The notes under the pieces are model-generated. The model was not told the DNA's origin. It did no database searches and was given only the letters and a program-made list of their open reading frames with translations. The position numbers and the translations under genes are program-made. From Pycnococcus provasolii (taxonomy: Eukaryota > Chlorophyta > Pseudoscourfieldiophyceae > Pseudoscourfieldiales > Pycnococcaceae): DNA of 64,000 nucleotides. Below are positions 15,558-60,613 of the stretch, one piece after another; position 1 is the stretch's first letter, and each line of letters opens with the position of its first letter. Where the stretch lies: assembly GCA_938743325.2 (NCBI GenBank), contig OW568873.1:682001-746000 (forward strand). Reading direction: 5' to 3'.

Positions 15558-18500
15558 ATGGACTTCGCGCAGCTCGGTAGTTCGGGGGGAAACACGCTCG
15601 TCCCGGGTGACGTCGTCGCGTTCCTCGTACGTCACTTGTTTCGCACAAGCCGAAAGCCTCGCAAGCCAGTCTCAACGTCACAAAGTATACTCACTCCCTC
15701 ACTCCCTCACTCCCTCTTTCCCTTGTTTTCTTTCCTCTAGGATGCCGCCGGACACGCGTACGTCGCCATCCCACCGTCTGACGAGTCGGAACCCACGTGG
15801 TTCATGAGCGAGCCCATTGACGCACTGCAGGAACCTCGGTGTCACCTGGTGCGCTACTTTCTTTCTTTCTATCTATCTTTCTTTGGCACCAACCACAACA
15901 CGGCAATGCCGAAGAAAACCTTCTAACGCCCACAAAAAATAAACACTTCTTACAATCAGGTGGTGCACCGTGGCCCGTCGGGCGAACTCGGATTCAAATC
16001 CGCGGATGCAGGGAACAGGTTCCTGCAGCCTCGCCGACGAGGACGCGCAAGGCTTGCGCTCGCAGGGCAGACGTTCGGCGTGAACGAACAGTGGGTCGTG
16101 GACGGAGGGGAGAGCCCGATCCCGCCTTCCAGCCCTGTGCGCAGCCGCGACGGGGGGTCAAATCAAATGCAGTGGGCAAGCGCGCCGCTGCTTTCGCTGA
16201 GAAGCCGACGCTACCCAGAGTTCAAGCTTGCCGTGAAGGTGCTGCGCGTGCCAGCGAGCCAGCTCACATCCGCGATGGCGGCAGCGTCAGCCAACGTACA
16301 ATTCGAGCAGGAGCGAGGGTCAAGCCCCATTCCCGTACGCCGGCGGTCAGAAATCTCCGTGCCGCGTTCCGTGCGCGCAAGTGCTCAAGGTGCGCTGGGC
16401 CATTCCATGTCGCCTGACCGCGAATCGGTAGAACTGCCGCAAGATTCAGAGGCCTTTGAGCGCATGAGTGCCTCCGCGCCCTCGCATGCGCGCGATGCCG
16501 CGCAGGCGGAGCAAGGGTCGGTGATGAGCGCGATGAGCGGCCTGCTCGTACGCGAGTGGTCGAGCTTCGTGCTCAAGGAGGTGCGCGCACGCCAGAAGGT
16601 GGACGGCGAGCTCAAGGACCTGGGCGAGCAGCTGCGAAAATGCCAGCAGGACACGCTCAAGGAAATTGATAGCATCAAGCTCATGATGCACGAGGAGTGC
16701 CAGCGCACTCTGCTCGAGGCGTGGCGCCGCCAGGAGCGCATGCGGCTGCTGCGGTCACGGAGGCGCCTCAAGTCATCAGTGCTGCGCGGCTGGCACTTGG
16801 TCATTCGGGATCGCGTCATGAAGCGTGAGCGTGCAAGGTCGGCGCACAGCGCCGGCATGATGCAGCGCGCGATGAGTGCGTGGCGATGGTACGTTGACGA
16901 AACGAAGGAAAACAGGAAGCTCATCATCTTCGTACGTCGGCGTGCCAACTTCGAGCGTGCGTCGACAACATTCTCCGCGTGGTTCCAGTTCACGCGCCTT
17001 CGATTGATTCGTGCGCGCGGACTGCGCTCCATCTTGGCGCGCGCACTCGGGCGTATTCTCACATCATTCTTTGCCGAGTGGCAACAGGCTGCGCGCAACG
17101 CCGCATGGGTTCGCCGTCGAATGGCAGGCGCCTTTTGCAAGCACGTGCGTTGCATGCGGCGCTATGCATTCCAAGCTTGGACTGGCGAATTTGACCGCTT
17201 GCGCAAATTCCGCACGCGCTACGCAAAGTCTTGCAGAGTTCGGCAGAGAAAAATTCTTCGGGAGGGGTTCGGGGCCTTCAGGCGTACGATCATTGACAAT
17301 CGTCGCAAGCGCCACCATGCTCGCCGCTTTCTCTACCTTGCATCGACGCGGAGGTTAGGCGTGTTGATGCAGGAGTGGCGCGAGCATGTGAGGTGGACGA
17401 AAAGATATCGATCTCGCGCCCGCCGCGCTATGCTCATGTTTTCGCAGCGCACGTCGGCGATTGTGATGCAGGAGTGGCGCGACGTTGCGAGACGCACGGC
17501 GAGGAATCGCACCAAGCTGCGGAAGTTCCTGTACTTCACCGCACAGCGTGGGCTGAACATCGTTCTGCAGGAGTGGCACGAGGTGACGCACGGCAAGCGC
17601 GTGTATGCGCAGCGCGTGCGTAAGCATCGCGCGCTCCTTCGCAGGAGGTGCATGGACTTCGGAATGGAGGCGTTCCGCCGTCTGCTTCGCATGGCAAGCC
17701 ACCGGCGTCATCAGACTCGGAAGTTTATGTTCATGATGTCGACACGCCAGCAGGCTGTGGTGATGCAGGAGTGGTGCGAGCAAGTCAACTGGATGAAAAA
17801 GTATCGATCTCGCGGCCGTCATGCGATGCTCCGCATGTCGCAGCGCACATCGGCGATTGTGATGCAGGAGTGGCGCGACGTTGCGAGACGCACGGCGAGG
17901 AATCGCACGAAGCTGCGGAAGTTCCTGTACTTCACCGCACAGCGTGGGCTGAACATCGTTCTGCAAGAGTGGCACGAGGCGACGCACGGCAAGCACGTGT
18001 ATGCGCAGCGCGTGCGTAAGCATCGCGCGCTCCTTCGCAGGAAGTGCATGGACTTCGGAATGGAGGCGTTCCGCCGTCTGCTTCGCATGGCAAAGCATCG
18101 CAAGAGTCAGCTACGCCGTATGCTATTTCACGCATCGACACGCCAGCAGGCTGTGGTGATGCAGGAGTGGCGCGAGCAAGTCAACTGGATGAAAAAGTAT
18201 CGATCCCGCGGCCGTCGCGCGATGCTCCGCATGTCGCAGCGCACATCGGCGATTGTGATGCAGGAGTGGCGCGACGTTGCGAGACGCACGGCGAGGAATC
18301 GCACCAAGCTGCGGAAGTTCCTGTACTTCACCGCACAGCGCGGGCTGAACATCGTTCTGCAAGAGTGGCACGAGGTGACGCACGGCAAGCGCGTGTATGC
18401 GCAGCGCGTGCGTAAGCATCGCGCGCTCCTTCGCAGGAGGTGCATGGACTTCGGAATGGAGGCGTTCCGCCGTCTGCTTCGCATGGCAAGCCACCGGCGT

Positions 18501-21500
18501 CATCAGACTCGGAAGTTTATGTTCATGATGTCGACACGCCAGCAGGCTGTGGTGATGCAGGAGTGGTGCGAGCAAGTCAACTGGATGAAAAAGTATCGAT
18601 CCCGCGGCCGTCATGCGATGCTCCGCATGTCGCAGCGCACGTCGGCGATTGTGATGCAGGAGTGGCGCGACGTTGCGAGACGCACGGCGAGGAATCGCAC
18701 GAAGCTGCGGAAGTTCCTGTACTTCACCGCACAGCGTGGGCTGAACATCGTTCTGCAAGAGTGGCACGAGGTGACGCACGGCAAGCACGTGTATGCGCAG
18801 CGCGTGCGTAAGCATCGCGCGCTCCTTCGCAGGAGGTGCATGGACTTCGGAATGGAGGCGTTCCGCCGTCTGCTTCGCATGGCAAGCCACCGGCGTCATC
18901 AGACTCGGAAGTTTATGTTCATGATGTCGACACGCCAGCAGGCTGTGGTGATGCAGGAGTGGTGCGAGCAAGTCAACTGGATGAAAAAGTATCGATCTCG
19001 CGGCCGTCAAGCGATGCTCCGCATGTCGCAGCGCACGTCGGCGATTGTGATGCAGGAGTGGCGCGAGTTGGCTCGACGTGGAGCTGCTATTCGTCGCAAG
19101 ACACGAAAATTCCTATTTCTCATGGGATGCAGAATCGTTGAGGTTGCCATGCGAGAATGGCGCATCGCGGCTAGCCGTTCCGTCGTTCGGAGAAGGAAGA
19201 TTAGCAAAAGCGTCTATCGCATGAGCTCACGAAAGTCTGGATTTATCCTGCAGCAGTGGTTCAGTGCCGTGATTACGGAACGCATGCATCGCAATCGCAT
19301 TTTACGCATGTATCGGCGGCGCTTGCAGATGGTGTTGACGGTGTGGAAGTACATGGCCACTGGCACTTCGGGCATGAAGAAGCTGGTGAACATCAAGGTG
19401 AGATTCTTCACACGCATCCGTAATCGTTCGATTCTGAATGCCTGGCGCGACGTGAAGGATCATAGCGTGTACACACGTCGCTTGCTCCTAAAGCAATTCG
19501 CCTCGAAAACGGGTCAGGACCATCGCAATATCCAGGATAGTCTCGTCTCTGAGAGGGTCGAGAAATTCGAGAAGGTGGCTACGCAGGCTGCGGAGGAGCG
19601 GCTTGAGAGCATTGCCGAGGTTCAGGAGGCGAAATTGGTGCACGCAAATGCCATGGCGGACTCTTTCGTCAAGGCGTTCGTTTCGACGAATACCGATGCA
19701 ACCACCAACTTGGCGCGAGCTGTCGCCCAGGCGATTCCATCAGACTCCTTAGCTGGTGTGGCTCTGTCCGTCGATGATTTGGCTGAAGACGATTCGGCGA
19801 GTGACATCACGGCCACGATTCGACAGGTTGGTCGTCTTGAGCTATCGGAATTATCGCGTCGTGCTATGGTGAGTGACCACCTCGAGTCTGTGAAGAGCGA
19901 TACGTATGCAGTCGCCGCGCGTCTTGTGGACCCGCGGCTGCTCTTAAAGGCGGGCCTGAATCCGACCGAAGTTGACGTATCCAGCACCGGGGGCAGAATA
20001 AGAACGTCAGCATCTCCTTCGAGACCGGGAACATCGTCCCGGCCCAGTCGCGTGGACTTTGCGGAAACTGCAAGAGAGGAGGCGAAAACCCTCCGCGAGG
20101 AATTGACATTGGATATTGATGCGGCGAAGATGAAGATTAAGAGTCTCGAGTCAAAGTCAAAGCCTCCTACGCCCGGCGCTCTCACCGCCGGTCGCTCCAC
20201 ATCCGACGAGATTTCGATATGGCGCAAAAAACTTGAGATTGCGCAGAAACGCCTCAATCAACTAGAAAAGTCTGTGCAGATGATAAATGAAAGCAAGTAT
20301 CTGTCGTCAATGGTCACGACTTCTACTTCTCCCGAGGAGGCTGATGATAATTCGAGCAAAGCTGCACGGTCGCCATCTACTCCGGCCATGTCGCCGACGA
20401 GGTCAGCAGTAAGCCTCCTAACTCGCCGCTTCGAGCAGGCGGAACCGTCACCGCAGGTTGGCGCATCACGTTCGATGGTATCGCCGTCGCTAGCTTCGGC
20501 TCGTGAATCGGTGGCCGCAGCCCGAGCCGTGGCAGTACAACGAGACGAGTCCTCGATCGCGCAAGACGTGCAAAGTGTCACAGATCGCGAAAAGCGCAAA
20601 TCGATATTAGCATCTGCGCAAGATGTGCTTGAAAATGTGCGCATATCACACAACTCGGACGTTGCGGCGATGCAACCGTCAGTTGAAATCCTGCTCGCCC
20701 AGGTGTCACGTGTCGCAGCCGTTTCGGATGAATGCTCAAACATGGCAGAAAGTGCAATCCCACAGGGCATTGCTCGCCACGCGGCGCTAGCGAAAAAGTT
20801 GGCGACCGCAATGGTGCGAAATGACACAGCGAATGTCTTTGGCTATGAATCTGAGATGTTGGCCATCGAAAAATCTCTCGAGGCGATGGGTGACCCTGTC
20901 CTCAAGGATAGTGACGAAGAGTCGACTGATGAAAATTCATCTCTACCGGCGAGTGCAGAAGCGCATGAATGTGTGCAGCGCCTCGTCGCGCTTGCTGCGG
21001 CGTGTGGAAAGGCGCGTGATGAGGCGGAAGCGGCAGCAGCTGCTGCGGCACGCGAGGATTCTGAGAACAGCGGTGATGGCAACGTTGGACCATTGGACCC
21101 AGAGTCTGCCGCACGCTGGATGAAGATTCGAGATGAGATGGCACAGGCTGAACTTAAGATTCGCGAGCGTCTAGATCGCCTCATTTCCGCTCGGGAGAAG
21201 GTCGCCAACGTGCGTGCCACCTCAGCCAACGTCTTGCGCAGCACTCTGGTTTCCATTGACCCTGTGGTGCACGATCGAGCTCTGGCTGCGAAGGTAGATC
21301 ACAATCAAATCGAAAAACCGCACGTCATGTACGAAAATTCCCAAAATCAAAAGGCAATGATTGAGATCTGGCGAAATCTTGAGTCAATGTGCAAGGGGAA
21401 CAAGGCGCTCGCACGTAGTGCCATGAAAGATGTCACTTCCGAAGCAGAAATCGCGGCACGATCTTCGGCGGAACGAAAAGAGCAGCTCAAGGTGCATGCG

Positions 21501-24500
21501 AGCGAGCTGCTTCGTAAGGGTTTAACAAAAGCGTACGGACGTGCAGTGAGCGACCTGCGGCGTGTTGAGGCTGCCAAGGACCGTAGCGAGGCGTTGGCTG
21601 CTTCCGTTGCCGCGAATCGCCTCCCCGAGGTTGTGATTTCTGGATCGCGAGAGGAGATAAATGCCAACGTTGGTACTATTTCGTCCTATGCTTGTTCTGC
21701 GTCGGATGCGAAGGAGCTCATCGAGAAGAGCCTTGTCGGCACATTGGCTCTCATGCGTGACCTTGAACGACGGGAGGAATTAGTAGTTTCCGGTGAGTCC
21801 GACGAGCTTTCCTTAGATGAAGGCATAGTAGCCAAGGAGAGCATGCACGTGAAAGCTGGAAAGATGACCTCAGCCCACTACGCGCAGACACGTGCTCTGG
21901 CGGCATTGGTTGCTCTGCGTGGACGCAAGGCCCATCTTACTTCAGAACGCTCACGCTTGAGCACCTTGATCAAGGAACTGCGCGAGAAAATGTCGAGTGA
22001 CGGCCTGTCATCTGACGGAGAGAAAAGATCGTCCTTACATCGCAGTGTCGAGAAAGCGGAGAATGAATTGGCAAAAGTTGAGGAGGAAATTGATGTGACT
22101 CAAGAGCACATCACGGAGATCAAGACAATCAGCAAAGACGCGCTCGACGTGCGCCTGAAGTACGAGCTTGGAATATCGGAACACATCAACAGATTCGCGG
22201 AGCTGTCCGTTGATAAGACGACGGAATCGGAGCTTACGGAATTGAGCGAAATTCATGCGGAAGGCCTTGAGGAAATGCAGCAGCTTTTGGAGCAGGAGCA
22301 GTCATTCGCGCAGCTTGGCAGAGTGGACAAGGAGGAAGAAATTCGAGAGCGGCGAGTTGCTTTGCGGCACAAGCTCGATCGCATAGGGGGCGCAACGGAG
22401 CTATTCAGTGTGAACATGGATGCGGCAAGGGGCTTGCGCATGAACATCGTGAGACTCGAGAAGGAGAAGGCATGCCTTCAGAAGGCGATTGAGCTGCAGC
22501 ACAAGGGTGCGAGCATTTCAGGAAGCACGGGTGGAAAAGTGCCTGGTCTTTCGCGATCTCCGACCATCGCAGGCGCGGTGTCTGATCTAGAGAGGGACCT
22601 ATCCTCAGTTTCCGATGCGATCAGCAATAGCGAAACGCATTTGAACGAAGTTATGATGGCACGTGACCAGCTTCGTCGCAGCGTAGCGGAGCGTGCGTTG
22701 AACATCCTCGATAAGTGCAGTGCAGACGTTTCGTCAGTGAAGCAAATGAAAGAGCGCCTTACCAATAAGATCGCTGCTGCTTCGCCCGATGAGAATTGGA
22801 GCGCAAGCGATCGTGACGAGCTTGCTGAAGCGGCTGTTGAGTTTAATCGAAAGTCGCTGGCATTATCATCCGATTTGAGGGATGTTTGGAAGATTGCAGA
22901 AAGCCTTATCCAGGAGCGTGATCATCACCACGAGCGAGAAGACATGCATCGCAAGGCTCTCGAAGCACCTCGCGCGATGGGAGACGAAGTCGCCATGAAA
23001 GTCCACGAGGTTCATTGCAATGATCACGCAAATGAGGCTCGCGCTTTCCACGTTCAGTACGAGTCCATTGCCGAAAAATTGCGGGTAATGTGGGCTGCGC
23101 GGTCTGAATATCTGCAGGATTTCGAGAAGACAGTCGTGGCGAAATTGGATTCGTTAGACAAGAGACAGGAGGCGTCGAAGGCTAGCAATTCCATTGCAAT
23201 GGATCCTCCCGTCGGAATGAAGCGCGGTGAGCTTTTACTGAAGGTTGCAGAGCAGGCGGAACAGTCGCCAAGCTCGTCGCCTCCAACCTCCTCTCGCGGT
23301 GAATTTGACTTTTTCTCTGCGGACGACACCCCTGCGACAGCAACAACGCGCCAGCTCACCGAAACAGTCACGGACACGTCGATGAAGAAGATGAACAGCG
23401 AGCTGAAAAGAGCCAGACGTAGCCTTGCACAGGCACGCACGGCGCAGATTGCTGCGCCAACCAGCTCCGCGGCGAATGCGTCGCTCGAGCGCCAGCTCGC
23501 CGCGGTGCGCAGCGAGCTGACTCAGGCGCTGCACATGCGCTTGGTAGCATCGGAGTCTGCGTCGGTTAGCCCGCCGGCATCTGCGGAGCTCGATCGCGAG
23601 ATCACGAAGATGCGCCGCGAATTTGCGGAGTCTTTACAGGCACATGCGGAGGCATCGGCTGACAGCGCTGCGGAGAGGGCGCAGATTGAGCGCGAGGCGG
23701 CGGCTGTCCGACGTGAGACTGTTGAGAGTTTGCGCTTGCAAGCGTCGGCGTCGATAGATCCGGCGGAATCGGCCGAGCTGAAGCGCGAGATTGCGTCGCT
23801 GCGTGCGGAGATGGCTGCTCAGGTGCAATCGAAATCAGATGTGGCGCTCACACCCATCAACACCTCCGGTATGAAGGATGTGGCAACCAAACTGTCGCAG
23901 ATGCGACACGATCTTGCTCGGGCACGCACGGCGCAGGTTGCTGCGCCAACCAGCTCCGCGGCGAATGCGTCGCTCGAGCGCCAGCTTGCCGCGGTGCGCA
24001 GCGAGCTGACTCAGGCGCTGCACATGCGCTTAGTAGCATCCGAGTCTGCGTCGGTTAGCCCGCCGGCATCTGCGGAGCTCGATCGCGAGATCACGAAGAT
24101 GCGCCGCGAATTTGCGGAGTCTCTACAGGCACAGGCGGAGGCATCGGCTGACAGCGCTGCGGAGAGGGCGCAGATTGAGCGCGAGGCGGCGGCTGTCCGA
24201 CGTGAGACTGTTGAGAGTTTGCGCTTGCAAGCGTCGGCGTCGATAGATCCGGCGGAATCGGCCGAGCTGAAGCGCGAGATTGCGTCGCTGCGTGCGGAGA
24301 TGGCTGCTCAGGTGCAGTCCACGATATCTGCATTAGCGCGTCCGCAAAAGGTTACCTTTGGTGCCACCGACCAAGAAGCGCCAAGTGAACGTCGCCTTGA
24401 GCGCACTTTCTCCAACGCGGGGACTAAGTTGAGGAATCTGCTATCAAGTCAACGTGAGCAGGTTCGCACTGCCCTGGATTCGATTGTCCACGCTAGGCAA

Positions 24501-27500
24501 GTGCAGTCTCGGGAAGAAGTCGAGTATGTCATCGAGCGTTCGGAGAGGGAGAAAGAAATTCAAATGGCTTCCAAGCTTGCTTCGGAGTTGGAAAGGCAGA
24601 ATAATGCGGCTATGGAGGCTGCGGCAAGCCTTGCACAGCTTGACGCGATCCGGACGATTCGACTGCAGCGTGTCGCGGATAGCGGTGGTGACGAGACGCA
24701 AGTCGCCGCGGCGCTTACGTGCCTTGCTGCCCCCACGGCAACTAGCAGCGTTGGTACCCCAGCCACAGGTACAAAAGCGCGGTTGCCTCGACCAACGATG
24801 GTTTCACAGTCTCCTACGGAAGTCGTTCACGCCAAGACTAATCTTGGAGATGCTCAGCTCGCGTCTGACTCGGCAGCTGCGAAAGAATTGTCCACGCTGC
24901 TCGAGGCATTAGCAAGTCAGGCGAAAGCGTATGAGGAGCAGGCTATTGAGGCGCGTGCGTCAGCCAATGAGGATCGCGCGGCGGAGTGCATGTCTAAGTC
25001 GGCAGAGTGCAAAGCTGCGTCAGAGAGCGCAAGCTACAACCTAAGGGTTTACCGGGATCGCGCACACGACATTCAATCTCGGAATATTGAAAAGAAGGTG
25101 CGTGCCGTTGCGCACCTGGAAAAGGTTCTGGAGCAACAAACGTCAAACGCGAATGCAACACAGGCGGCAGCGGATCTTGTTAGTGTCCTTGGCGAGTCAC
25201 GCGATGCGTTGAATGAGCTGAGCGACCAGATGCATGCAGTGAAGGTTCTCGCCGACAAGGAGAAAAAGCTTCAGAAAATGCACGATCACTGCATGGAGCT
25301 TGACGATATGGAGAAAGCGGCACTGCTCAACGACCAGAGTCTCTTCATCGCCCGGGAAGTTGCCATGAATCTTTTGGGTGGCACTGGCCGGAAGAAGCTT
25401 TTGCGAGGAAAATCGCTAACGCTTACGCTCGCTGACCCTATGGCTGGCAGTGCGCGCGAAACTACGCCGAAATCACACGCTGGGGAAGGACTGTCACAGC
25501 GTGTGAGCACGAAGAGCACGCTGAACTTAAAAGTTCACAAGAGCTGGCGAGAGAGCATCATGCGCAAAGCAGTCGACGCATGGCATATTGTGCACATGCG
25601 TCGCGTCTACATGGCGACTCGCATTGGTCACTACCGTCTCGTGCTCACGCGGGTTCGTGGCCCATTCCACGGCTGGTTTTTCGTGCAGCAGGCGCACGCG
25701 AGGAAGCAACAGATTCTCGTTAAGGTGCATCGTCGCATGATGCAGCTGCGCCTCCGCTCGCACATCAAAGCGTGGCATGAGGTTATGCAGGAGTCTAGGC
25801 GCAAGGAGGCTTGGCGAAATGGCATGTTGGAAAATAGCAAGCGTCGCTCGCGCTGGATTTGCCTGAAGGCGTCGTTCGCCACGTGGAAATCGAAAGCGCA
25901 GCGTCGCAAACACCTGCTGGCGATTGGCCGACGTGCCGTACTAGCTGCCAAGCATGCTCTAGTTCGGCGCGCGTTCCTCACAATGCGACATGCCGCGCGA
26001 AGCAGGCTGAACCTGCGAGTGCTGGCGGCAAAGTGCCTCACGCGCGTGCTGACGAACCTAGCATGGACTTTCTTCTCCTCCTGGAAGGCATACGCGCACA
26101 TGGTTGTGCAGAATCGCAGCTTGGTTCGCATGGCACTCGCGCGCCTCGCAGCAAAGACAGCCACTGTTGCATTCGTGGCGTGGCGCAACCACATCGAGAT
26201 GGTGGGATACTACGCGCAGAGGAAGAAGAGAGCTCTGGCGATGTGTACAAATAGGCTTTCGTCCGACGCCTTCCACGGCTGGCGCATGGAGAGGGAAAAG
26301 CAGAGGCGCCTTGGCATGCGCATTCGTCGATCGGCGCGCAAGATCATGACTGTGTACGCGTCAGCCGCGTTCCACGACTGGGTTGACGCCGTTTCGGCGA
26401 AGAACGCGATGCGCGGTCGCGTGCGTTGCGTGATTGCGCGCATGCTGCGATTCTGCGCGCTGCGCGCGCTGAATGCGTGGATGGACGTTGCGCTCAATCG
26501 TAGGAAACACTTCGACCTGCTGGAGCGTGTCGCGCGCGTCAGGATGTCGCTGATGCGTTGGAACGCCTTTGCTCGATGGAGAGAGGCGATGCTCGTGCGC
26601 AAGGAAAAAAATCGTCTCGTTCGAATGGCAATGATGAGAATCCTGCGGTCAAAACTGTCAGCCTGCTTTCGGCACTGGCTCCTCTGCGCTCAGAACCGCC
26701 TGCTGATGGACAGAAAGGTGCACGAAGCCGCGCGTCGCTTCCTGCTTGGCAACATGTACACTTCCTTCTACCACTGGAGGGATGTCGCGCGACATGCGGT
26801 GACGCGCGATCGTCTCATGCGCGCCTTCCGCGTCGGCTGCGCGAAGAATCTGGCGAAGATCTACCTCCGTGGATGGTACCGTACTTCGAGCCTCCGCAGC
26901 GCACTTCTTCGGCAGTACCGCCACGCATGGCTTCGCCTGAGCATGCGCCTGATGCGCACCGTGCTGCGCCACTGGCTTACAGCTGCTTACGCGCAGCAGC
27001 GAGCGCGCGACTCCATTACAGCGATATCGCGAAAGCACATGCGGATGGTACAGCACAAGTTCACCAAGGCTTGGGCTGGTGAGATGCGCACCGCGCGGGC
27101 GAATCGCACGAGAGCCTTCGCCGCATTTGCGCGCATGCGGCGCGCTCTGCTTCGTCAGGTGGTGCTGCGCTGGCACCGCGTGATCCTGCACGAGCAGAAA
27201 GTTCGGCAGACGTTGGCGAGGTTTGCATCTCACCTCCTGAATCTGTGGGGATCAGCCGTTCTCCGCTCATGGTGGAAGCTTGGCGAGACTGTTCGTCTTC
27301 GAAAGGAGAAGATGCACCGCTGCGTGACCGCGAAGCGCGTTGTCATGCAGTGGTTCTTGCAATGGTACTGGGACGCGTACGACGACGAAATTCGCAGCGC
27401 GCTGCGGCTTCTCTATGGATCGACGGAGGGTGCGATGGACAGCCTGTATGGAAATGGCGGCGGTCAGGTGAGTCCGGTAGGCCTTGCTCGCATTCGCGGC

Positions 27501-27848
27501 ATTGGCGGGGGTGGCTACACGGTGAGAAGGCAGGCAGCAACGCCGTCGGAGACGAGCTCGGTCGGTGCAGGTCTCGAGGAGGCTGCGGAACGGGCTCATG
27601 TCAAGTTTCTGCGTTCGTCACACGACGCGTCTCTTTACAAGGAAAATGGGGAAGGCACGAGCTTGTTTTCCGCGCGATATGGAAATGCTGCCGCGGCGGC
27701 GGCGGCGGCAGCCTCTAAGGGAGGACAGTCGTCAACACCACTGAGCACGCCGTCGAGCACGCTTCGAAGGTCTGGTGGTGGCGGCGGCGGTGGCGGACAA
27801 CAATTGAGCCCTGATTGGGGCGACCTCACGAACCGCTTGAACATATAA
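15558..27848 (+). CDS. Giant centrin-binding Sfi1-repeat and coiled-coil protein
   Basis: Three exons: 15558-15626, 15741-15848 and 15960-27848, all phase 0, giving about 4021 residues; introns are 114 bp (GTACGT...TAG) and 111 bp (GTGCGC...CAG). Residues about 15-105 look like a beta-trefoil ('GELGFKSADAGNRFLQ', 'FGVNEQW'). Two arrays of Sfi1 repeats (about 33 residues, central pattern LhxxWxxxh) follow: about 300-1180 and 3230-3860. Between them lies some 2000 residues of coiled coil and Ser/Pro-rich linkers. Array 1 contains four near-identical 132-residue blocks; the central coil contains a 163-residue duplication. The C-terminus is Gly- and Ser-rich. Sfi1 repeats bind centrin and build contractile fibres at spindle poles and basal bodies; I infer a role in basal-body-linked fibres. 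A TGTAA lies at 27866-27870. Yeast and human SFI1 are about 950-1240 residues, so this is unusually long. Confidence 0.85.
17449..19032 (+). repeat. Four tandem 396-bp coding repeats inside the Sfi1 gene
   Basis: The segment carrying VMQEWRDVARRTARNRTK recurs every 396 bp (near 17461, 17857, 18253 and 18649). Each unit encodes four Sfi1 repeats. Copies differ by a few bases; copy 2 has its own third module (KHRKSQLRRMLFHAST instead of SHRRHQTRKFMFMMST). Near-identity at DNA level points to recent unequal crossing-over or gene conversion. Confidence 0.88.
23432..24320 (+). repeat. 489-bp coding duplication in the coiled-coil region
   Basis: The segment starting GGCACGCACGGCGCAG at 23432 recurs at 23921 with only scattered changes over about 400 bp. 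It encodes a heptad-like Ala/Glu/Arg-rich helix of about 140 residues plus a variable linker. Confidence 0.85.
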
Positions 27849-29485: not shown

Positions 29486-32400
29486 TCAACCACGCCAGCT
29501 AGGACGGGATTGTAGCATCGTATCCGCCGAACCGGGTGGGGTTTGCGGGAAGAGCTCGTCACGGCGATCTTTCGTCCACCAAGTCTCGCCAATTATACGC
29601 GCCGTCTCGGATGTCGAAGGACGGGCTAGCTTCTGCGTCGACGATGTGTGAAGAAACGGAGGCATGGCAGGCGACACCGGCCGCGTCAACGATGGCGACG
29701 GAGGCATCGAAAACGAGATGGGATATGGGGATGAAGGACTTGGCGGCGGCGAACCCCATTCAAGCTGCTTTCTTGCAGCAGTCGTCGGCGTCGTCGTCGT
29801 GATCGTTATCAACCCACGCTTTTGCGTAGATCGCGTTGTGAAGCGTTTGGGCGAAACGGTCATCGGCGACGAAAGTGGACGACGTTGTTGTTGATGAGAA
29901 TGCAGCGTCATGGTCGTTGTCGAATTGACAACCTCCTTTGGAATTAGTCCTAACCAACCACGGCGTAGCCAGGCCGGAGGCGAATCTGACGAATCTGGCT
30001 GCAGAAGGCGGCTCATCATCTTGCGCGAGGGTGTACGGCCTTCCACATCACCAGCCGCAACGTCGATGAGAGGACTTGTCGGACTCGACGCACGGTTGCC
30101 AGCCGATGACGAAGATGACGATTGCAATCTGCCGCGAACGCTTCGACGACTGGCATCCTGTGAATCAGGTCCACCGCCGGTGGTAGTATGCGCCACTTTG
30201 GCGGCAAAGTCGCGCTCAAGGACCGAGCCTGCGTCACGAAGGCGGAACGATTGGCCAGGCTGCCTTGTGAGCCAAGCGCGAACGCCGCCTATGGCAGCAA
30301 CGCGTGCCTTGCCACCCTCCTCGTCTAAAAACATGTCATCCTCCGACGAGGCGGCGGAAGTGGCGGTAATCCCGTCGATGATTCGACTACTTCCAACGAG
30401 CTTCTCGATGCGTGCAACGTCAAATGCGTGCCTCTGAGCCGCAGCACGCTTGAGCCGTTCGAGCGCCCGGTCGCCATGCTCGAGAGAACCGTACGCTGTG
30501 ATAAGATCCTCGGGGCGGCACGCGTACATTTCGGCGTGAACTGCAGACACGATGGCAGACACAGGTTCCTTCTGACGGAAAAGACACGCGTACGCGCCGA
30601 CACTCTCACCCTCGCCAATATGTGCAACCTTTGTCAGAGTGGCTCCCTTTGCGCTTGAAATGTGCACGCACTTGTGTAGCAAACCCGATCGCACGATGTA
30701 CATGCGGCTCGCGGCGTCGCCCTCGCATAGAACATGCTTACCTCGCGCCATCTTCTCGACTGTGAACGAGTAGGCTATCTTCGCGAGACTGCGCGTTGGA
30801 TACTTTGCCATGTCGTCAAGCGCGAGGGGGCGGCGTAGCGTGGCTAGCTTTTTGTCGAGCTCAGCCACCTGCACGTCGCTCATCAGCCTCTCGAAGTCTG
30901 ATCGGATCACCATCATGAGCGTTACGCGGTCGTCCGCGGCGAAGATGGATGCATTGCGACGTCCGCCCGTCGTAAATGCCATCTCTCCGAAGCTCTGCCC
31001 TGCATGCAGAGTCGAAACAATCTTGCCCATCATACGCGATGGAAGCTTGGCACGATGGTTCTTACGCCTGCGAAGGTAGTGGTGACACTGTGTCAACTGC
31101 TTGCTCGCATTCTTCTCCCAGATACGAACATTCAGCTCGCCGCTGAGCACGACGTAAAAGGCATCGCACGGCTCGCCCATCAGAAACACCGGGTCCTGTG
31201 CCTCGAGCTGAAGCAGCGTAGCACATTCGCAGAGCTTGTTACGCACCTCGGCATTCAAATTCGACGCGAACGCGCTACTACCCTGCATGAGCACGCCCAG
31301 TCGCTCCGTGTCCTCGCTCGTTCGAAGCTCCGGCGGCTTGAGAAGCAACTTCTTCACCAATGCAACGCTCAAAATCTTGGTAATGCGCTGACGTACGTCT
31401 GCGCTGCAGTCCTCGAACGAAGATCGGCTCAACACGACGAGCACTGCGCCATTTGACCCGGATACGGCGGTGGCAATGCGCGCAGCATCAGCCTCCGTCG
31501 CGGCAATCACCGCCGCCTCGCCGAGGCAGTCGCCAGCAACAAGCTCGCCGATGCGTGCGCCGTAACGTGCCGTTGTACTTGTCCAGACTCCGTTGTCACC
31601 GACATCGTCACCGCCGGCGTTCTCGTTGCCGCCGTCGGCGCCTGCGCCCACGCGTTTCTCTTCGCCGCCATCCCCATCCTGCCGCGACATAACACTTCTC
31701 TCCCTCTCCTCCTCAAACGACGAGAGACGCACGGTCGGCTCCGCCGCCTCGTCGAGGTCTTCAACGTCCACCTCATCAGCCATAGGATCAGCGGAGGCGG
31801 CGAACGTCTCCGATTGCGAAACCCTCTTTTCCTCGGTGTAGACGCGTGAGTAGACGTCAAGAGAGCCACGCAGAACGACGTACAGCTCGTCACCAATCTC
31901 ACCCTCCTCGCACACGACGCTTCCGGCGGGCACCTCTCGCAGCGTCACGCGTCGGCACATGGCATGCAGCACGTCGGCATCGAATGCACCAAAGAATCGC
32001 AGGCTCGCGAGCATCTCCTCCACTGCGAGCTCCTCCGACGGCGTCCATGAGCTCGTTGGACGTCGCATGAGCGCTACGAGCTTTTCCCCGATATCGCCGA
32101 GGAAGAAGATGGATCCTTTCATGCGGGATGCCGCCTCCATCGCCACGCGCTTTGACACGAGAATCACCTCCGTGTGCGGGCCTGCGTCGGGATCGTCGTC
32201 AGCATCGTCCACGCTCGCGTGCACGTCTGCGATAACAGTCGAAGCGCGCGGCGCCTTTCGCAGCACCGCCTGCTCGCCGAAGCATGCACCTGCTTGAAGC
32301 GTCGCCACCTTCGGGCCGTACATTCCCTGAAGCGTCATTTCTTGGAATGCAGCGCGGGCGCTTGCCACTGCCACGCGGCGAGCAGTGAGGTAGGTCATGT

Positions 32401-33277
32401 CGAGGCTGTTATTTTCGTCGTCCTTCTTGTCATCAATGCCGCCGTGATCGGATGAGCTCCCAGCCTGGTGCAGAGTCTCACCGTCGACGTGTGCGTTTAG
32501 CTCCGCGGCATCGTTGCGATTCTGGAGCTCAGCGATCGTGGCGTGCCAAGTCGTGACGGCTGCGTCGTGCGCCGCAACGTCCGCGGCGTCGTGCGACGCA
32601 TTTGCCTGCATTGCGCGCGCGACACCTCGGCTCCACTTGCCTCGCGTTGCGCCTTCACTTGCGGCGGCACGCCTTTGCAGGTCCGCCGCCGTGCTCGCCG
32701 CCTGCCTTGAAATTTCCGTCGGCGTGCTCACCACACGCAACGGCAGTCTCGAGCCCGTCGCGCGCGCAGTCACGTGTCCCCACTCAGGCTTGCGTGGGCT
32801 TCCGCTGCTCGTCTTTGCCGCTTCCGAGGTTGGTGAGGTTTCGTCGGCACCGCTTGCGTTGGTGCTCCTGTGTGCTCTCCTGACCCGTATCTGCACCGCT
32901 CCATTAATGACGACGAACATCGTCTCCCCTTCGGAACCCTGCTCGAAGAGCACGGTGCCCGCCTTAAGTTTTCTGAGCGCGACTCGCTTGGCGAGTGCCG
33001 CGACGGCGTCGACGTCCATTTCGTGGAAGAATGGGAGTCTCTTGAGCGCGGCGACGGCGGACGCAAGCAGAGACGGCGTTCGTTCCTCCGTGGGCAGCGT
33101 GAGCACGCGCCTGAGCGCGAGCAGGTCCGGCGACGTCGCATGTGCGTGCGCGTGCGTGCCTGCTGCCATCATCATCGCGGGCGCGGCGGACGTCGCCCGT
33201 TTCAGCAGCAAGGTATTGGTTAGCGTATCAGAAGGCGAGAAGGTGGTGGAGCGCGCGAGACCAGTGCGCGGCGCCAT
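29486..33277 (-). CDS. Protein with four cyclic-nucleotide-binding domains
   Basis: A single-exon 1263-residue protein with no membrane segment and no kinase or channel. Four CNB beta-rolls are seen, starting near residues 72 (LPFFHEMDVDAVAALAKRV), 422 (LRFFGAFDADVLHAMCRRV), 667 and 835 (ARGKHVLCEGDAASRMYIV). Domain 1 is split by an insertion of about 190 residues before its phosphate-binding cassette (FGEQAVLRKAPRAST). Domain 3 has an intact cassette (FGEMAFTTGGRRNAS). Domains 2 (LGEAAV) and 4 (VGAYACL) have degenerate cassettes lacking the usual Arg, so probably only 1 and 3 bind cAMP or cGMP. The C-terminal 300 residues are Ser/Pro/Thr-rich and disordered. Stand-alone multi-CNB proteins are common in flagellates; role inferred as regulatory or ciliary, unproven. 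An AATAAA-like element follows the stop. Confidence 0.82.
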   Translation of the reverse strand: MAPRTGLARSTTFSPSDTLTNTLLLKRATSAAPAMMMAAGTHAHAHATSPDLLALRRVLTLPTEERTPSLLASAVAALKRLPFFHEMDVDAVAALAKRVALRKLKAGTVLFEQGSEGETMFVVINGAVQIRVRRAHRSTNASGADETSPTSEAAKTSSGSPRKPEWGHVTARATGSRLPLRVVSTPTEISRQAASTAADLQRRAAASEGATRGKWSRGVARAMQANASHDAADVAAHDAAVTTWHATIAELQNRNDAAELNAHVDGETLHQAGSSSDHGGIDDKKDDENNSLDMTYLTARRVAVASARAAFQEMTLQGMYGPKVATLQAGACFGEQAVLRKAPRASTVIADVHASVDDADDDPDAGPHTEVILVSKRVAMEAASRMKGSIFFLGDIGEKLVALMRRPTSSWTPSEELAVEEMLASLRFFGAFDADVLHAMCRRVTLREVPAGSVVCEEGEIGDELYVVLRGSLDVYSRVYTEEKRVSQSETFAASADPMADEVDVEDLDEAAEPTVRLSSFEEERERSVMSRQDGDGGEEKRVGAGADGGNENAGGDDVGDNGVWTSTTARYGARIGELVAGDCLGEAAVIAATEADAARIATAVSGSNGAVLVVLSRSSFEDCSADVRQRITKILSVALVKKLLLKPPELRTSEDTERLGVLMQGSSAFASNLNAEVRNKLCECATLLQLEAQDPVFLMGEPCDAFYVVLSGELNVRIWEKNASKQLTQCHHYLRRRKNHRAKLPSRMMGKIVSTLHAGQSFGEMAFTTGGRRNASIFAADDRVTLMMVIRSDFERLMSDVQVAELDKKLATLRRPLALDDMAKYPTRSLAKIAYSFTVEKMARGKHVLCEGDAASRMYIVRSGLLHKCVHISSAKGATLTKVAHIGEGESVGAYACLFRQKEPVSAIVSAVHAEMYACRPEDLITAYGSLEHGDRALERLKRAAAQRHAFDVARIEKLVGSSRIIDGITATSAASSEDDMFLDEEGGKARVAAIGGVRAWLTRQPGQSFRLRDAGSVLERDFAAKVAHTTTGGGPDSQDASRRSVRGRLQSSSSSSAGNRASSPTSPLIDVAAGDVEGRTPSRKMMSRLLQPDSSDSPPAWLRRGWLGLIPKEVVNSTTTMTLHSHQQQRRPLSSPMTVSPKRFTTRSTQKRGLITITTTTPTTAARKQLEWGSPPPSPSSPYPISFSMPPSPSLTRPVSPAMPPFLHTSSTQKLARPSTSETARIIGETWWTKDRRDELFPQTPPGSADTMLQSRPSWRG

Positions 33278-42284: not shown

Positions 42285-42800
42285 GGGAATGGCCGGACGC
42301 CTACCTTAAGATAGTCTTGTCTAGGCAGGAGTCAACGCTTAACGTTGGGCCCCAGGAGGAACGGGTTCGGGCCTTCGGGGAGACCATGTGATTTCTCAAC
42401 GCCCCAAACAGCCAAAGGGAGGAACCACCTCGATCGTCGCATGCATGCAAGTACCATCACAGGAATTCGCTCAAGGCCCGGCCGGTCCCTGGTAAAATAC
42501 CTCTACAGTAAAGTAGTTGGTAGTACTACCCACCCCCCTTGGCTTGCCCCTCTATGGTGCCATCTAAGGTAAACTTAAGGCTTAGTCTAGCTAAGATACC
42601 AACCGGTACAGTATGTATGTAGTAGGTTAACCGGGTAGGGTATGGTAGGCCGACCGATTCCCCAGGGGCCGACAAATAGTCTAAGGTAGAATATCAGTTC
42701 GTTCGGCATTAGGGTTGTAAGGGAACCCGAACCCTAATCCTAACCCTAACCCTAACCCTAACCCTACTCCTTTCCCACTTCTCCTGTACTCCTTCATGTC
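42285..42800. other. Intergenic region with telomere-type array
   Basis: Divergent promoter space of the pherophorin-like and DnaJ genes. A TGGGCCCC box sits near 42342. No gene. Confidence 0.5.
42730..42767 (-). repeat. Interstitial telomere-type array upstream of the DnaJ gene
   Basis: Five to six CCCTAA units with one variant (CCTAAT), ending about 35 bp before the ORF start at 42801 and about 95 bp before the alternative start at 42861. Confidence 0.88.
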
Positions 42801-46061: not shown

Positions 46062-46590
46062 GTGAAAAAAACTAACAGCCTGAATGAATGAAAGTTGTCA
46101 ATGTGCTTGCGTGTTTGCCTATTATCAGGGAGTGTGCTCTTAAGACCGCACACTCGCGCCTCCGGAGGTTGCCTGGCCGACTACCAACCTAGACTGGTTC
46201 ACGTGAGCACGCTTCCAAAAAAAGGGGCTCGGTTCACATTAACCCTTTTGATCCGGCTGCCCGGTACAGTACTACGGTGGTGAGTGGTGACACAACACAG
46301 CACAACACAGCTCATTCCATATTGAATATTTCATTCCGCCGCCGAGAGAGCTTCGAAGAAGTCAACACCTGTCTGTACCTGCAGAATTCCCTTAGATGAT
46401 GGTTCGAGGGCGTTAGGGTTAGGGTTACTGGGTTAGGGTTAGGGTTAGGGTTAGGGTTACTGGGTTAGGGTTAGGGTTACTGGGTTAGAAACTCCGTCGA
46501 ATTCCGTCCCCTCATATTTGGTAAGGTTTAGTTTCATTCGTTGATTGATTCGGCTGGCGTGTTCTGCGTCTGCGTTTGGTTTCAGGACTC
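46062..46590. other. Intergenic region with telomere-type array
   Basis: Divergent promoter space between the hydrolase and the RCC1-like gene; besides the array I see no gene. Confidence 0.5.
46413..46488 (+). repeat. Interstitial TTAGGG array with ACTGGG variants
   Basis: About eleven TTAGGG units, broken three times by the variant TTACTGGG. Ends about 100 bp before the start at 46591. Confidence 0.9.
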
Positions 46591-57377: not shown

Positions 57378-57742
57378 GAGTTGCGTACGAAGGGGCGAGA
57401 GCTCTCCCGTACATTTTACTCGTAGTTGGGATTTGGTTGGAAATAAGCTTTGTCTGGCTTTTGCATACACGCACCGTTAACGCGCTCCATCGCACTTCTC
57501 AGGAAGAACAATCCTTTGCGCCCGTGCGTGCCTCTTCTCATCATTGTTCGCGTCGCTCGCCACGCCCGCACGCGTCGCGGCTCTTACTCCTGCACGTCTG
57601 CGATTCTGCGAACAGGCCGGCCTGTGGCAGTGTTGTGTTGTGTGACAACAAACAACAAATAATACCGTCACTTTCTTCATCATCATCGCCAGCCAGTTGC
57701 CATCGTCACAACTAAAAAGAAGCAAGGAGAGGCACCGTCAAC

Positions 57743-60613
57743 ATGCAACGCGGTGCAGCACAAGGAAAATTATGGACGTACTTCATCAGCCACAAGCAGA
57801 GTGACAGCAAGACAGAGGCGCTCGAACTGACTGTGCAACTCGGAAAAGGCGCGTGCTGGCTTGACGTTCACCAACGCGATGCGGGCCAAAAGGCCATGGA
57901 GAACGGCGTGCGTAACTCGCAGTTCTTCGTGTGCATTATCAGCCCAGGATACCTGGAGTCGAAGTGGTGTATGACGGAACTCGAGTGGGCGTTCACGTTC
58001 AGCAAACCCATCATCCTGTGCTTTCGCTCGGCGGACAACGTCGGCGCTATCCTGCCACGACTGCCTAACGAGTTTGCAAGTTTGAGCAATATCCAAGGCA
58101 TCAAGTTAGACCGCTCGCACCCAGACTTCTTCCAGGTCGCCATAAACATGATACGCGAGCGTGTTGGCGACGCGACGGGAAGCAGCGATGGCATATCGAA
58201 AGTCCGGCGAGGGAAGGAGGCAATCGAGCACTGGAAGAAAATGCGAGCGACAGTGTTCACAGTCGTCGCAGCGAGGCGCTTCCGCGAAGGTGGGAAGGAG
58301 CACCACCGCAGTAACCACGAGCTCGACGTGCTCCCGGCCATTGCACTTCGCAAGCTCGAGAACCCGCAGCTTCAGCTCAACGCAGATCAGCAGCTGGAGG
58401 TGCTCGAGGCGTGCATCGCGGCTGGAAAGCAGCAGGCTGTGCGCGCGACAGATAAGCAGCTCGTCATGGTGATTGGCAATACAGGTGCCGGCAAGAGCAC
58501 GCTCGTCAACTACTTGCACGGCTGTCAGATGGAGCTTCACAAGACGACGGATGAAAAAGGCAAAAAGAAGAAAGTGATTCGAGTCCGTGAAGACTCGAGT
58601 CCGCCCGAGCTGATGGAGATCGGTCACACGAACAAGTCGGCGACATTCATGCCGAAGGTTGACGGCGGCGACGACACGCTGACGTTCGCGGACTGTCCGG
58701 GCTTCCTGGATAATTGCGGCGCGGAGATCAACATTGCGAACGCGGTGAATATCAAGGCGGCCGTATCTCAAGCAGCTGGTATTCGCGTGCTTATCGTGCT
58801 GAACTACTACTCGCTCAAGGCTGATCGAGGCAGAGGCATTCGCGAACTTGCCCAGATTCTCGCCGACCTCTTTGGCGATGCCAGGCGCATGAGAGAGCAT
58901 GCAAGCTCGGTGATCCTAGGACTCAGCCAAGCACCTCGCAGGGACGAGGATGACGACGAACCCATGCAGTTGTCAGACTTCCAAGATCGTGTGAGCGATA
59001 CCACCGGGCTTGGCGACGATGCTGCGGCAATCGTCAAATCTCTGGTGAGCCGGATGTTCGTGTACGACCCGTTGAATCGTGGCGACGAGACGTGGAGTGT
59101 TTGCGATCACATTCTTGCCAGTTTGCGCTCATTACCGCCCATCGCCGAACCTGGGGACGTGTTCCGAACGGTGCTCACGGCTGAGGACGAACGCGCGCTT
59201 CGCGCATGTGTATCTGAAATGTCGATGAGGCTACGGAAGGGTATGGAGCGCAAGGAATACGACATGGTTGGTACGATGCTGCGTCAGCTGAGTGCGCTCG
59301 AGGGCATTGGCAATCCTCTCGTGACACGGATGTTGGCATATGCCCGTGAGCAGGTGGCTCTCGCATCGGTAATGCTCAAGGATGATGCGATCAGATGCGC
59401 GATGACTCGAGGCTTTGACGAGGCGGACGAGGGCGTGCGAGAACTTAAGCGCGCCGCCTCGGCTTTGTCCAAAGCGGGACAGGCGACGAAAGATCTCGCG
59501 CGGCGTGTGCTGAAGATGTCTGAGGATGCAGGTGCCGCCGTGAGTCGCTTGAAGGAGGATGAGCAGGAGCGCAGGCAGATGCGTGATCGTCACGACGCCT
59601 TGCAGCGGCAGGTGGAATTTCTCGAAGCGAAAGCACGCGAGGACCGTGAACGCGCGGATGCTCAGCGCGCCGAGCTTGAGAAAGAGCGTGCTGACAATGA
59701 GCGGAAGCGCACGGACATGGCGGATGCGTTCGAGGCTGAGCGAAAGAAGCTCGAGGAACGCATGGCAGAATCCACCGAGGCGGAGGTGCGCAAGAAGATG
59801 CAGGAGGAACTGAAGCGTCTCGAGGCTGAGCGTGATGCGCAGGAGCGGGAGGCACGCGAGACATTCGAGAAGCGCGAGAGGCAACTGCGTAAGCAGGCTG
59901 AGGCAAGTGCACGGCGAGCCGCTGAGGCAGAGAAGGAAAGGCAGAGCTTGATGTCAGCTGCAAAGAAGGAACAGGAGCAGCAAGCGACGAGCGAAATGGA
60001 TATCTACCGGCAGCAAGCCCTCGCCCGAGAGAAAGCTCGAACATCACAATCATCATCATTAAAGCCAACAACAAACACGGGCAATGACAACAACAAGTAC
60101 GAGAATGATGATATTTACCGATTGATTAGAGAACAAAAGTGGAGTGAAGTGAAGGCATGCTTGAGCGCGAATCCTGGAAAGGCCAGGGAGAAGAACGATA
60201 ATGACGGATATCTACCCCTGCATCGGGCGGCTCAATACAATGCCCCCGCAGACGTCGTTCGCATGCTGCTCGATGCGTATCCAGCAGGAGCCAAGGAGAA
60301 GAATTGGTGCGATTATCTACCCCTGCATTATGCGGCTGAAAACAAAGCCCCCGCAGACGTCGTTCGCATTCTGCTCGATGCGTATGCGGAAGGAGCCAGG
60401 GAGAAAGACAACTATGGGGATCTACCCCTGCATCATGCGGCTGCAAACAAAGCCCCCGAAGATGTCGTTCGCATGCTGGTTGAGGCCTATCCCGAAGGGA
60501 AAAAAGTCAAGACCAATTATGGAAAATTGCCGGTGCACTTTGCGAAGGATTTTGGTGCCCCCAAAGAAATCATCAAACTTCTAGACGTGCCGTTGGGATC
60601 ATCTTGGTTCTAA
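57743..60613 (+). CDS. TIR-GTPase-coiled-coil-ankyrin protein
   Basis: 956 residues, single exon. TIR domain 1-150: YFISHKQSDS opens it, FFVCIISPGYLESKWC contains the alpha-C motif, and Glu79 in WCMTEL occupies the place of the catalytic Glu of NADase TIRs. A GTPase-like domain follows with P-loop GNTGAGKS at 245-252 and DCPGF (Walker B/G3) near 314; a typical NKxD G4 is not seen. About 600-770 is a long Glu/Arg-rich coiled coil. About 790-945 are three to four ankyrin-type repeats (GYLPLHRAAQYNAPADVVRM), more regular than the rest and similar to one another. Layout resembles NLR immune receptors, but NB-ARC is replaced by an AIG1/GIMAP- or dynamin-like P-loop GTPase and LRRs by ankyrins. Expected function: sensing followed by TIR-driven NAD+ cleavage or signalling; this is inference. 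TGTAA at 60647-60651. Confidence 0.85.
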   Translation: MQRGAAQGKLWTYFISHKQSDSKTEALELTVQLGKGACWLDVHQRDAGQKAMENGVRNSQFFVCIISPGYLESKWCMTELEWAFTFSKPIILCFRSADNVGAILPRLPNEFASLSNIQGIKLDRSHPDFFQVAINMIRERVGDATGSSDGISKVRRGKEAIEHWKKMRATVFTVVAARRFREGGKEHHRSNHELDVLPAIALRKLENPQLQLNADQQLEVLEACIAAGKQQAVRATDKQLVMVIGNTGAGKSTLVNYLHGCQMELHKTTDEKGKKKKVIRVREDSSPPELMEIGHTNKSATFMPKVDGGDDTLTFADCPGFLDNCGAEINIANAVNIKAAVSQAAGIRVLIVLNYYSLKADRGRGIRELAQILADLFGDARRMREHASSVILGLSQAPRRDEDDDEPMQLSDFQDRVSDTTGLGDDAAAIVKSLVSRMFVYDPLNRGDETWSVCDHILASLRSLPPIAEPGDVFRTVLTAEDERALRACVSEMSMRLRKGMERKEYDMVGTMLRQLSALEGIGNPLVTRMLAYAREQVALASVMLKDDAIRCAMTRGFDEADEGVRELKRAASALSKAGQATKDLARRVLKMSEDAGAAVSRLKEDEQERRQMRDRHDALQRQVEFLEAKAREDRERADAQRAELEKERADNERKRTDMADAFEAERKKLEERMAESTEAEVRKKMQEELKRLEAERDAQEREARETFEKRERQLRKQAEASARRAAEAEKERQSLMSAAKKEQEQQATSEMDIYRQQALAREKARTSQSSSLKPTTNTGNDNNKYENDDIYRLIREQKWSEVKACLSANPGKAREKNDNDGYLPLHRAAQYNAPADVVRMLLDAYPAGAKEKNWCDYLPLHYAAENKAPADVVRILLDAYAEGAREKDNYGDLPLHHAAANKAPEDVVRMLVEAYPEGKKVKTNYGKLPVHFAKDFGAPKEIIKLLDVPLGSSWF

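What the first reader, a model, noticed from the sequence alone, without database searches (positions are those of the whole stretch)
57743..60613. TIR-GTPase-coiled-coil-ankyrin protein: candidate non-canonical immune receptor in an alga
The sequence shows a TIR domain with the catalytic-type Glu (E79 in WCMTEL), a P-loop GTPase with GNTGAGKS and DCPGF, a long coiled coil and ankyrin repeats in one chain. Known plant TIR receptors use NB-ARC plus LRR; animal SARM1 uses SAM domains. Swapping NB-ARC for an AIG1/GIMAP- or dynamin-like GTPase, with ankyrins as sensor, would be an independent design of an innate immune or cell-death sensor. The GTPase lacks a visible NKxD, so nucleotide specificity is open.
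Basis: partly seen in the sequence, partly recalled or inferred. Interest (0 to 1): 0.78.

Follow-up and report, generated by a model that had tools for sequence, protein, structure and literature searches.

The report
Algal TIR–GTPase–ankyrin fusion protein
A gene, probably from a green alga, joins a TIR domain that may break down NAD, a GTPase module whose only relatives found here sit on plasmids of bacteria that live inside other cells, a long helix and ankyrin repeats; it looks like an independently built danger sensor, but its function is untested.

Summary
Window 57743-60613 (+) is one intact 956-aa ORF with a TIR domain (TIR_2, E 7e-14), a P-loop GTPase (MMR_HSR1, 6e-6), a charged helical stretch and about four ankyrin repeats (Ank_2, 1.9e-20). 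E79 sits in W75-C-M-T-E79 and is invariant in an alignment with four bacterial TIRs, but phmmer's SARM1 alignment does not place it under a Glu, and TLR6 has a Glu there too. No NB-ARC or LRR was hit.

The GTPase guess is refined. AIG1 is not hit; dynamin and septin stay below Pfam's cut-offs. Detectable kin are unnamed GTPases on plasmids of Megaera/Megaira (alga and ciliate hosts) and Neochlamydia. A profile made only from those finds the algal ORF at 5e-33. Their G4 T-K is L-G in the alga.

Most likely it works like an NLR: ankyrin sensor, GTPase switch, helical oligomeriser, TIR enzyme. Catalysis, partners, expression and immune role are inferred. No genome was held; eukaryotes could not be searched; both structure models were poor. 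New variant of a known kind.

The parts
57743..60613 (+). whole uninterrupted ORF, 956 aa, TIR-GTPase-helical-ankyrin
   Evidence: upstream in-frame stop at 57713; no transcript data
57770..58111 (+). TIR domain, about residues 10-123
   Evidence: TIR_2 7e-14; 14-123 with 50.5 bits when residues 1-186 are given alone; bacterial-only TIR profile 4.9e-16
57965..57982 (+). WCMTEL motif, residues 75-80, putative catalytic Glu E79 and Cys C76
   Evidence: E79 invariant in the 5 rows of A3; under a Glu in 4 of 5 phmmer alignments shown, not in SARM1
58223..58312 (+). basic linker, residues 161-190, between TIR and GTPase
   Evidence: sequence; no Pfam hit for residues 150-239
58418..59152 (+). P-loop GTPase region, residues 226-470
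   Evidence: MMR_HSR1 6.3e-6 over 241-353; kin; bacterial-only profile 5e-33
58475..58498 (+). Walker A / G1, GNTGAGKS, residues 245-252
58691..58705 (+). G3, DCPGF, residues 317-321
   Evidence: invariant in the 6 rows of A4
58916..58921 (+). position of G4: L392-G393 where bacterial kin have T-K (4 of 5 rows, two of them near-identical) or T-H (1 of 5)
   Evidence: alignment A4
59180..59542 (+). helical region, residues 480-600
   Evidence: 3.5-residue hydrophobic periodicity, 0.003 of shuffles as strong; mostly helical in a low-confidence model; no Pfam hit for residues 460-786
59540..60064 (+). charged helix, residues 600-774; coiled coil likely only to about 660
   Evidence: no Pro or Gly in 600-774; periodicity tests
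60095..60610 (+). ankyrin repeats, residues 785-956
   Evidence: Ank_2 1.9e-20; repeat units at 824, 859, 894, 929

Best explanation
It is an intracellular, NLR-like signalling receptor of a (probably green) alga built from non-NLR parts. A ligand or modified host protein binds the C-terminal ankyrin repeats. This changes the nucleotide state or dimerisation of the P-loop GTPase, helped by the helical region, and brings TIR domains together. The clustered TIR domains then use E79 to split NAD+ (or C76/E79 to make cyclic nucleotides), giving a stress, defence or cell-death signal. Shown: the domains, their order, the Glu position by sequence alignment, the intact P-loop and G3, the altered G4, and kinship of the GTPase to GTPases of intracellular symbionts. 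Inferred: enzyme activity, switch behaviour, oligomerisation, ankyrin ligand and biological role.
For: Domain hits. E79 and the WxxxE context conserved against bacterial TIRs. P-loop and DCPGF invariant in the GTPase kin. NTPase switches coupled to repeat arrays in immune proteins, including STAND ATPases and AP-GTPases, are described in PMC8195603 (passages); a bacterial conflict system with TIR and an AIG-subfamily GTPase among its effector domains is described in PMC7159879 (passages). The three close ankyrin units differ by 16-22 nonsynonymous changes, dN/dS 0.41-1.09, compatible with weak constraint on a binding surface, though all three bootstrap limits include no difference.
Against: No functional, expression or copy-number data. 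The Glu is not proof of activity: TLR6, which I recall as not an NADase, has a Glu in the same column, and phmmer's SARM1 alignment puts E79 opposite an Asp behind a gap; an alignment by eye of the two W-x-x-x-E motifs would resolve this but was not tested. TIR_2 defines a TIR but not its type (PMC13142454 section 5), and not all TIRs hydrolyse NAD (PMC9153377 passages). The G4 change may mean poor GTP selectivity. The ankyrin array is short. Among the window proteins scanned nothing suggests a defence cluster.
Confidence: 0.48

Rival explanations
1. A TIR-NADase protein of ordinary cell physiology (NAD homeostasis, stress or programmed death without pathogen sensing), with ankyrins and helix for localisation; SARM1-like in logic rather than a receptor.
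For: E79 context intact; an atlas of eukaryotic TIRs reports SARM1-like TIR sequences in green algae among others (PMC13142454 section 5).
Against: No SAM or ARM domain among the 23 Pfam families; SARM1 is only a weak phmmer match (0.016-0.035 for six SARM1 rows) and E79 is not under its Glu there.
Confidence: 0.24
2. A scaffold: the TIR only self-associates and the GTPase has lost guanine selectivity; the protein assembles complexes, e.g. in trafficking or cytoskeleton.
For: G4 T-K replaced by L-G; long charged helix and ankyrins; PMC9153377 notes TIRs without the catalytic Glu or NADase activity (passages).
Against: Putative catalytic Glu, Walker A and G3 are all kept, unexpected if both enzymes were dispensable.
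Confidence: 0.18
3. A gene whose GTPase was exchanged with an intracellular symbiont, acting at the host-symbiont interface rather than as a general immune receptor.
For: In the collections searched, GTPase kin appeared only on symbiont plasmids; one of them carries C48-peptidase and RickCE domains and its plasmid also holds a TIR gene.
Against: TIR and GTPase parts have the codon usage of window genes; none of the five bacterial proteins scanned has a TIR or ankyrin hit at E<=0.01; eukaryotic genomes, where relatives would be expected, could not be searched.
Confidence: 0.1

Closest known systems
GTPase proteins of Candidatus Megaira/Megaera plasmids (UCM94756.1, WPX99759.1, WPX99760.1, WPX99955.1) and Neochlamydia S13 (WP_042243459.1)
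   Same: same GTPase family: 22-30% identity over the aligned domain, shared GxTGxGKST and DCPGF
   Different: no TIR or ankyrin hit at E<=0.01 in the five; partners are C48 peptidase plus RickCE, TPR, or unassigned; T-K at G4 in 4 of 5 rows. Pfam's GTPase model does not hit the Neochlamydia protein at E<=0.01
Plant TNL receptors (TIR-NB-ARC-LRR)
   Same: N-terminal TIR, middle NTPase, C-terminal repeats; W-C-x-x-E motif resembles plant TIRs (recalled); L6 and RPS4 are weak phmmer matches (0.017-0.51)
   Different: no NB-ARC, no LRR; a GTPase takes the switch position
SARM1 NADase
   Same: TIR; phmmer match 0.016-0.035 for six rows
   Different: no ARM or SAM hit; TIR is N-terminal here (SARM1 layout recalled)
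Bacterial conflict systems with TIR and AIG-type GTPase parts (Kaur et al. 2020, PMC7159879)
   Same: TIR and a GTPase as parts of one defence system (passages read)
   Different: multi-gene systems there; here one eukaryotic chain with ankyrins; AIG1 membership not met
Cat1, CRISPR-associated TIR (PDB 9mud)
   Same: best solved relative of the TIR, 9.5e-6, shared W-C-x-x-E-L-E
   Different: match covers residues 14-87 only; no GTPase or ankyrin known to me
Oomycete ankyrin-TIR proteins (noted in PMC9153377)
   Same: TIR and ankyrins in one protein (passage)
   Different: no GTPase mentioned in the passage; uncharacterised

Membership tests
TIR domain | profile score above curated cut-off | tested here: met
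   TIR_2 52.8 vs 28 bits, TIR 24.2 vs 21.3
TIR domain, NADase type | catalytic Glu in WxxxE context | tested here: met
   E79 invariant in 5 rows; under a Glu in 4 of 5 phmmer alignments shown, opposite Asp in SARM1. That the column is the catalytic Glu is recalled; TLR6 shares it, so it does not prove activity
TIR domain, NADase type | NAD+ cleavage | not testable with these tools
   needs an assay
TIR domain | flavodoxin-like TIR fold | tested here: inconclusive
   single-sequence AlphaFold2 pLDDT 40.5
Plant NLR/TNL | NB-ARC domain | tested here: not met
   absent from the 23 Pfam families at E<=1
Plant NLR/TNL | LRR | tested here: not met
   repeats are ankyrin; no LRR hit
AIG1/GIMAP (PF04548) | profile above cut-off | tested here: not met
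   no hit at E<=1; two Megaera kin 0.0088 and 0.0068, 15.8 and 16.2 of 27 bits
Dynamin (PF00350) | profile above cut-off | tested here: not met
   13.5 of 27 bits, 17.4 when the domain is given alone
Septin (PF00735) | profile above cut-off | tested here: not met
   15.8 of 26.2 bits; family profile vs PDB septin-3 E 0.00035, P-loop region only
TRAFAC-type P-loop GTPase | G1, G3 and G4 motifs | tested here: inconclusive
   G1 and G3 met; G4 not met in the alga (L-G for T-K); MMR_HSR1 passes its cut-off
Unnamed symbiont GTPase family (Megaera/Neochlamydia) | hit by a profile built without the alga | tested here: met
   5e-33; 0 of 1000 shuffles and 0 of the other 704 window segments hit
SARM1 | ARM and SAM domains | tested here: not met
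   no such hit
Known anti-phage defence proteins (PADLOC) | match over the whole protein | tested here: not met
   only partial matches: PDC-S66 4.8e-6 and ThsB 0.0045 over the TIR, LeoBC 0.0057 over the P-loop
Immune receptor (function) | ligand-dependent defence output | not testable with these tools
   no expression or phenotype data

The most novel reading that the evidence does not exclude
Algae assembled an NLR analogue from a GTPase module shared with intracellular bacteria: the switch that symbionts carry on plasmids, in one case fused to C48-peptidase and RickCE domains that look host-directed, is in the alga joined to a TIR death enzyme and a freely changing ankyrin sensor, so that host and symbiont play with the same part on opposite sides.
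Probability: 0.15. Interest if true: 0.8.

Novelty: new variant of a known kind. Interest (0 to 1): 0.52.

Why it matters
How single-celled algae sense intracellular invaders is, as far as I know, largely open. [quoted passage not shown] A TIR with a different NTPase and a different sensor would show that the effector-switch-repeats plan was reached again without NB-ARC, and it offers a compact, uninterrupted gene for testing whether a GTPase can gate a TIR enzyme. The link to GTPases on symbiont plasmids makes the direction of gene flow testable.

Tried and rejected
Genome-wide copy number: no whole genome is held for the window; within the window only the ORF itself matched convincingly. Relatives of the whole protein: 14 pattern stretches in prokaryote genomes, 0 confirmed; 0 of 50,697 phage records. 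A DNA pattern for DCPGFLDN gave L001-L003, whose similarity does not go beyond the motif and a few residues beside it. L004 (1 confirmed of 26 stretches) is a chance match in another frame of an unrelated gene. Scans of viral contigs with GTPase or TIR queries: 0 confirmed of 4, 53, 147 and 11 stretches. 0 of 395 Bacteroidota genomes had the GTPase family at 1e-6; no positive control lay inside that phylum, and one phylum says little about others. 0 plasmid records matched the ankyrin part at 1e-10. TIR query in plasmids: 3 of 72,556 at 0.01. NCBIfam gave nothing near a cut-off among the families shown (23 of 23 for the protein, 25 of 68 for the GTPase part).

AlphaFold2 without an alignment gave pLDDT 43.5 for residues 161-600 and 40.5 for residues 1-145; I ran no fold search on models this poor. 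I did not hand alignments with plasmid proteins to the structure tool, whose rule admits other sources only.

AIG1, dynamin and septin were considered and rejected as family names. The AIG1 profile also rings in 12 of 14 control genomes, over its cut-off in 8, so it does not discriminate at low scores. A defence-gene cluster around the ORF: none seen among the proteins scanned.

Full report
What is there. The reading frame at 57743-60613 on the + strand is intact, 956 codons, with an in-frame stop at 57713 just before the ATG. Pfam gives TIR_2 at residues 14-96 (7e-14), MMR_HSR1 at 241-353 (6.3e-6) and ankyrin families within 821-934; these pass their curated cut-offs, other GTPase and ATPase models do not. 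Codon scores of the TIR, GTPase, middle and charged-helix parts (0.18, 0.20, 0.10, 0.12 bits) lie in or just below the range of nine other window genes (0.106-0.285); the ankyrin part differs (GC3 0.53 against 0.64-0.69, score -0.12), which may mean a separately acquired or recently expanded array. Open frames of up to 264 aa run on the minus strand of the ORF; I did not scan them for domains.

Where it comes from. No genome is held for the window. Window genes include STI1/HOP, an F-box protein, a Dsc3-like protein, DnaJ, an acyltransferase, a NIPA-type transporter and a protein that joins a DRMBL repair domain to an ATP-dependent DNA ligase. I recall the last layout as that of plant ligase 6, which is why I take the window as green algal; that step rests on recall.

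Is it more than chance. Profiles built only from bacterial sequences, without the alga, were run on 705 stop-to-stop segments of the window and 1000 shuffles of the protein. The GTPase profile (five rows) hit this ORF alone at 5e-33, the TIR profile (four rows) this ORF alone at 4.9e-16.

TIR. The best solved relative is Cat1, a CRISPR-associated TIR (9.5e-6), followed at 0.0036 and weaker by bacterial TIRs, Toll-like receptors, SARM1 and plant L6. E79 is one of six invariant columns in an alignment of five TIRs. Of the five phmmer alignments shown, four put a Glu under E79 (Cat1, two bacterial TIRs, TLR6) and one, SARM1, an Asp behind a gap. TLR6 is, as I recall, not an NADase, so the Glu is necessary rather than telling. 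By eye the W-x-x-x-E of SARM1 a few residues on would match, but I could not test this with a structure. C76 lies three residues before E79; [quoted passage not shown] that it is the same position is my inference. TIR_2 is too broad to tell the type (PMC13142454, section 5 read).

GTPase. It does not reach the cut-offs of the dynamin and septin families and AIG1 is not hit. tblastn in 72,556 plasmid records gave 3 records at E<=0.1: Megaira of Mesostigma viride (1e-11), Megaera polyxenophila from a ciliate culture (6e-7) and Neochlamydia S13 (3e-3) (that Neochlamydia lives in amoebae is recalled). The Megaira domain as query gave 4 of 72,556 at 0.01, including itself and a second Megaera plasmid. 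Scored one record at a time, the three plasmids match at 4e-24, 4.7e-18 and 2.4e-11, and the one Bacteroidota genome in that call does not. In six aligned rows (five bacterial proteins, two of them near-identical in this part) the P-loop and DCPGF are invariant, while the G4 pair is T-K in four bacterial rows, T-H in one and L-G in the alga. A profile of five rows matches septin-3 best among GTPases of known structure (3.5e-4), but over the P-loop region only, and an ABC transporter scores better still. So a place near septins is a lead, not a result. The bacterial partners vary: C48 peptidase and RickCE domains in one, TPR in another, none assigned in the rest. 0 of 395 Bacteroidota genomes had the family, and no phage record matched the whole protein. 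Eukaryotes could not be searched. I recall, without a test, similar GTPases in ciliates and other protists; if so, the bacteria may have taken the gene from hosts.

Helix and ankyrins. Residues 600-774 have no Pro or Gly. Hydrophobic periodicity is significant for 480-600 and 600-660 and absent for 660-774 in one test, and not significant over 600-775 in a cruder one, so part may be a single charged helix rather than a coiled coil. Ankyrin units at 824, 859 and 894 are 70-79% identical in DNA and 57-66% in protein; a fourth at 929 is diverged. dN/dS between the three is 1.09, 0.41 and 0.60, each with bootstrap limits that include equality. The array looks young and loosely held, but positive selection is not shown.

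How it probably works. Sensor at the C end, nucleotide switch and helix in the middle, TIR effector at the N end, as in NLR-type proteins. A bacterial system whose effector domains include TIR and an AIG-subfamily GTPase is described (PMC7159879 passages), and the AP-GTPase is described as sometimes displacing the STAND NTPase in bacterial systems (PMC8195603 passages), so a GTPase in this place is plausible. All mechanistic steps are inferred.

Novelty. Six hyphenated names for such a fusion (such as TIR-GTPase and TIR-ankyrin) occur in 0 of the 5.39 million papers held. The nine other searches showed no description of this layout in the titles and abstract openings listed, but several were cut short (30 of 42, 10 of 589, 15 of 254 and 12 of 191 papers listed). 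I saw passages only of seven papers and the abstract, one section and a passage of an eighth. A TIR survey counts 16 chlorophytan TIR domains, and 7 green-algal TIRs in its one eukaryotic group of diverse architectures (PMC7075850 passages), so related layouts may lie in supplements or unlisted papers. I therefore call it a new variant of a known kind.

Noticed in passing
window 42724-42766 and 46412-46479: Interstitial telomere-like arrays, AACCCT at the left and GTTAGG at the right, in opposite strand sense, flanking a DnaJ gene and a hydrolase gene.
   Followed up: no
window 15960-27848 (+): 3962-aa ORF with a 396-bp tandem array at 17357-19070 and repeated W-containing helical units; resembles Sfi1-like centrin-binding repeats (recalled). 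One Pfam hit, below its cut-off.
   Followed up: partly
window 29486-33277 (-): 1263-aa ORF with four cyclic-nucleotide-binding stretches and no other Pfam family at E<=0.001.
   Followed up: no
window 58223-58312 (+): Basic, hydrophobic linker (WKKMRATVFTVVAARRFREGG) between TIR and GTPase; could be a calmodulin- or membrane-binding helix (guess).
   Followed up: no
window 60095-60610 (+): Ankyrin-coding part has codon usage unlike the rest of the gene (GC3 0.53, negative codon score).
   Followed up: partly
L005 5284-10518 and L012 11847-12815: Megaira plasmid of Mesostigma viride carries a 1744-aa protein with the GTPase plus C48-peptidase and RickCE domains, and a separate TIR gene about 5 kb away.
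   Followed up: partly
L006 5935-8670 and 8675-10996: Two adjacent Megaera polyxenophila genes share, by eye, a near-identical GTPase part and have different C-terminal parts (one Gly-rich, one TPR), as if the switch were kept and the tail swapped.
   Followed up: no
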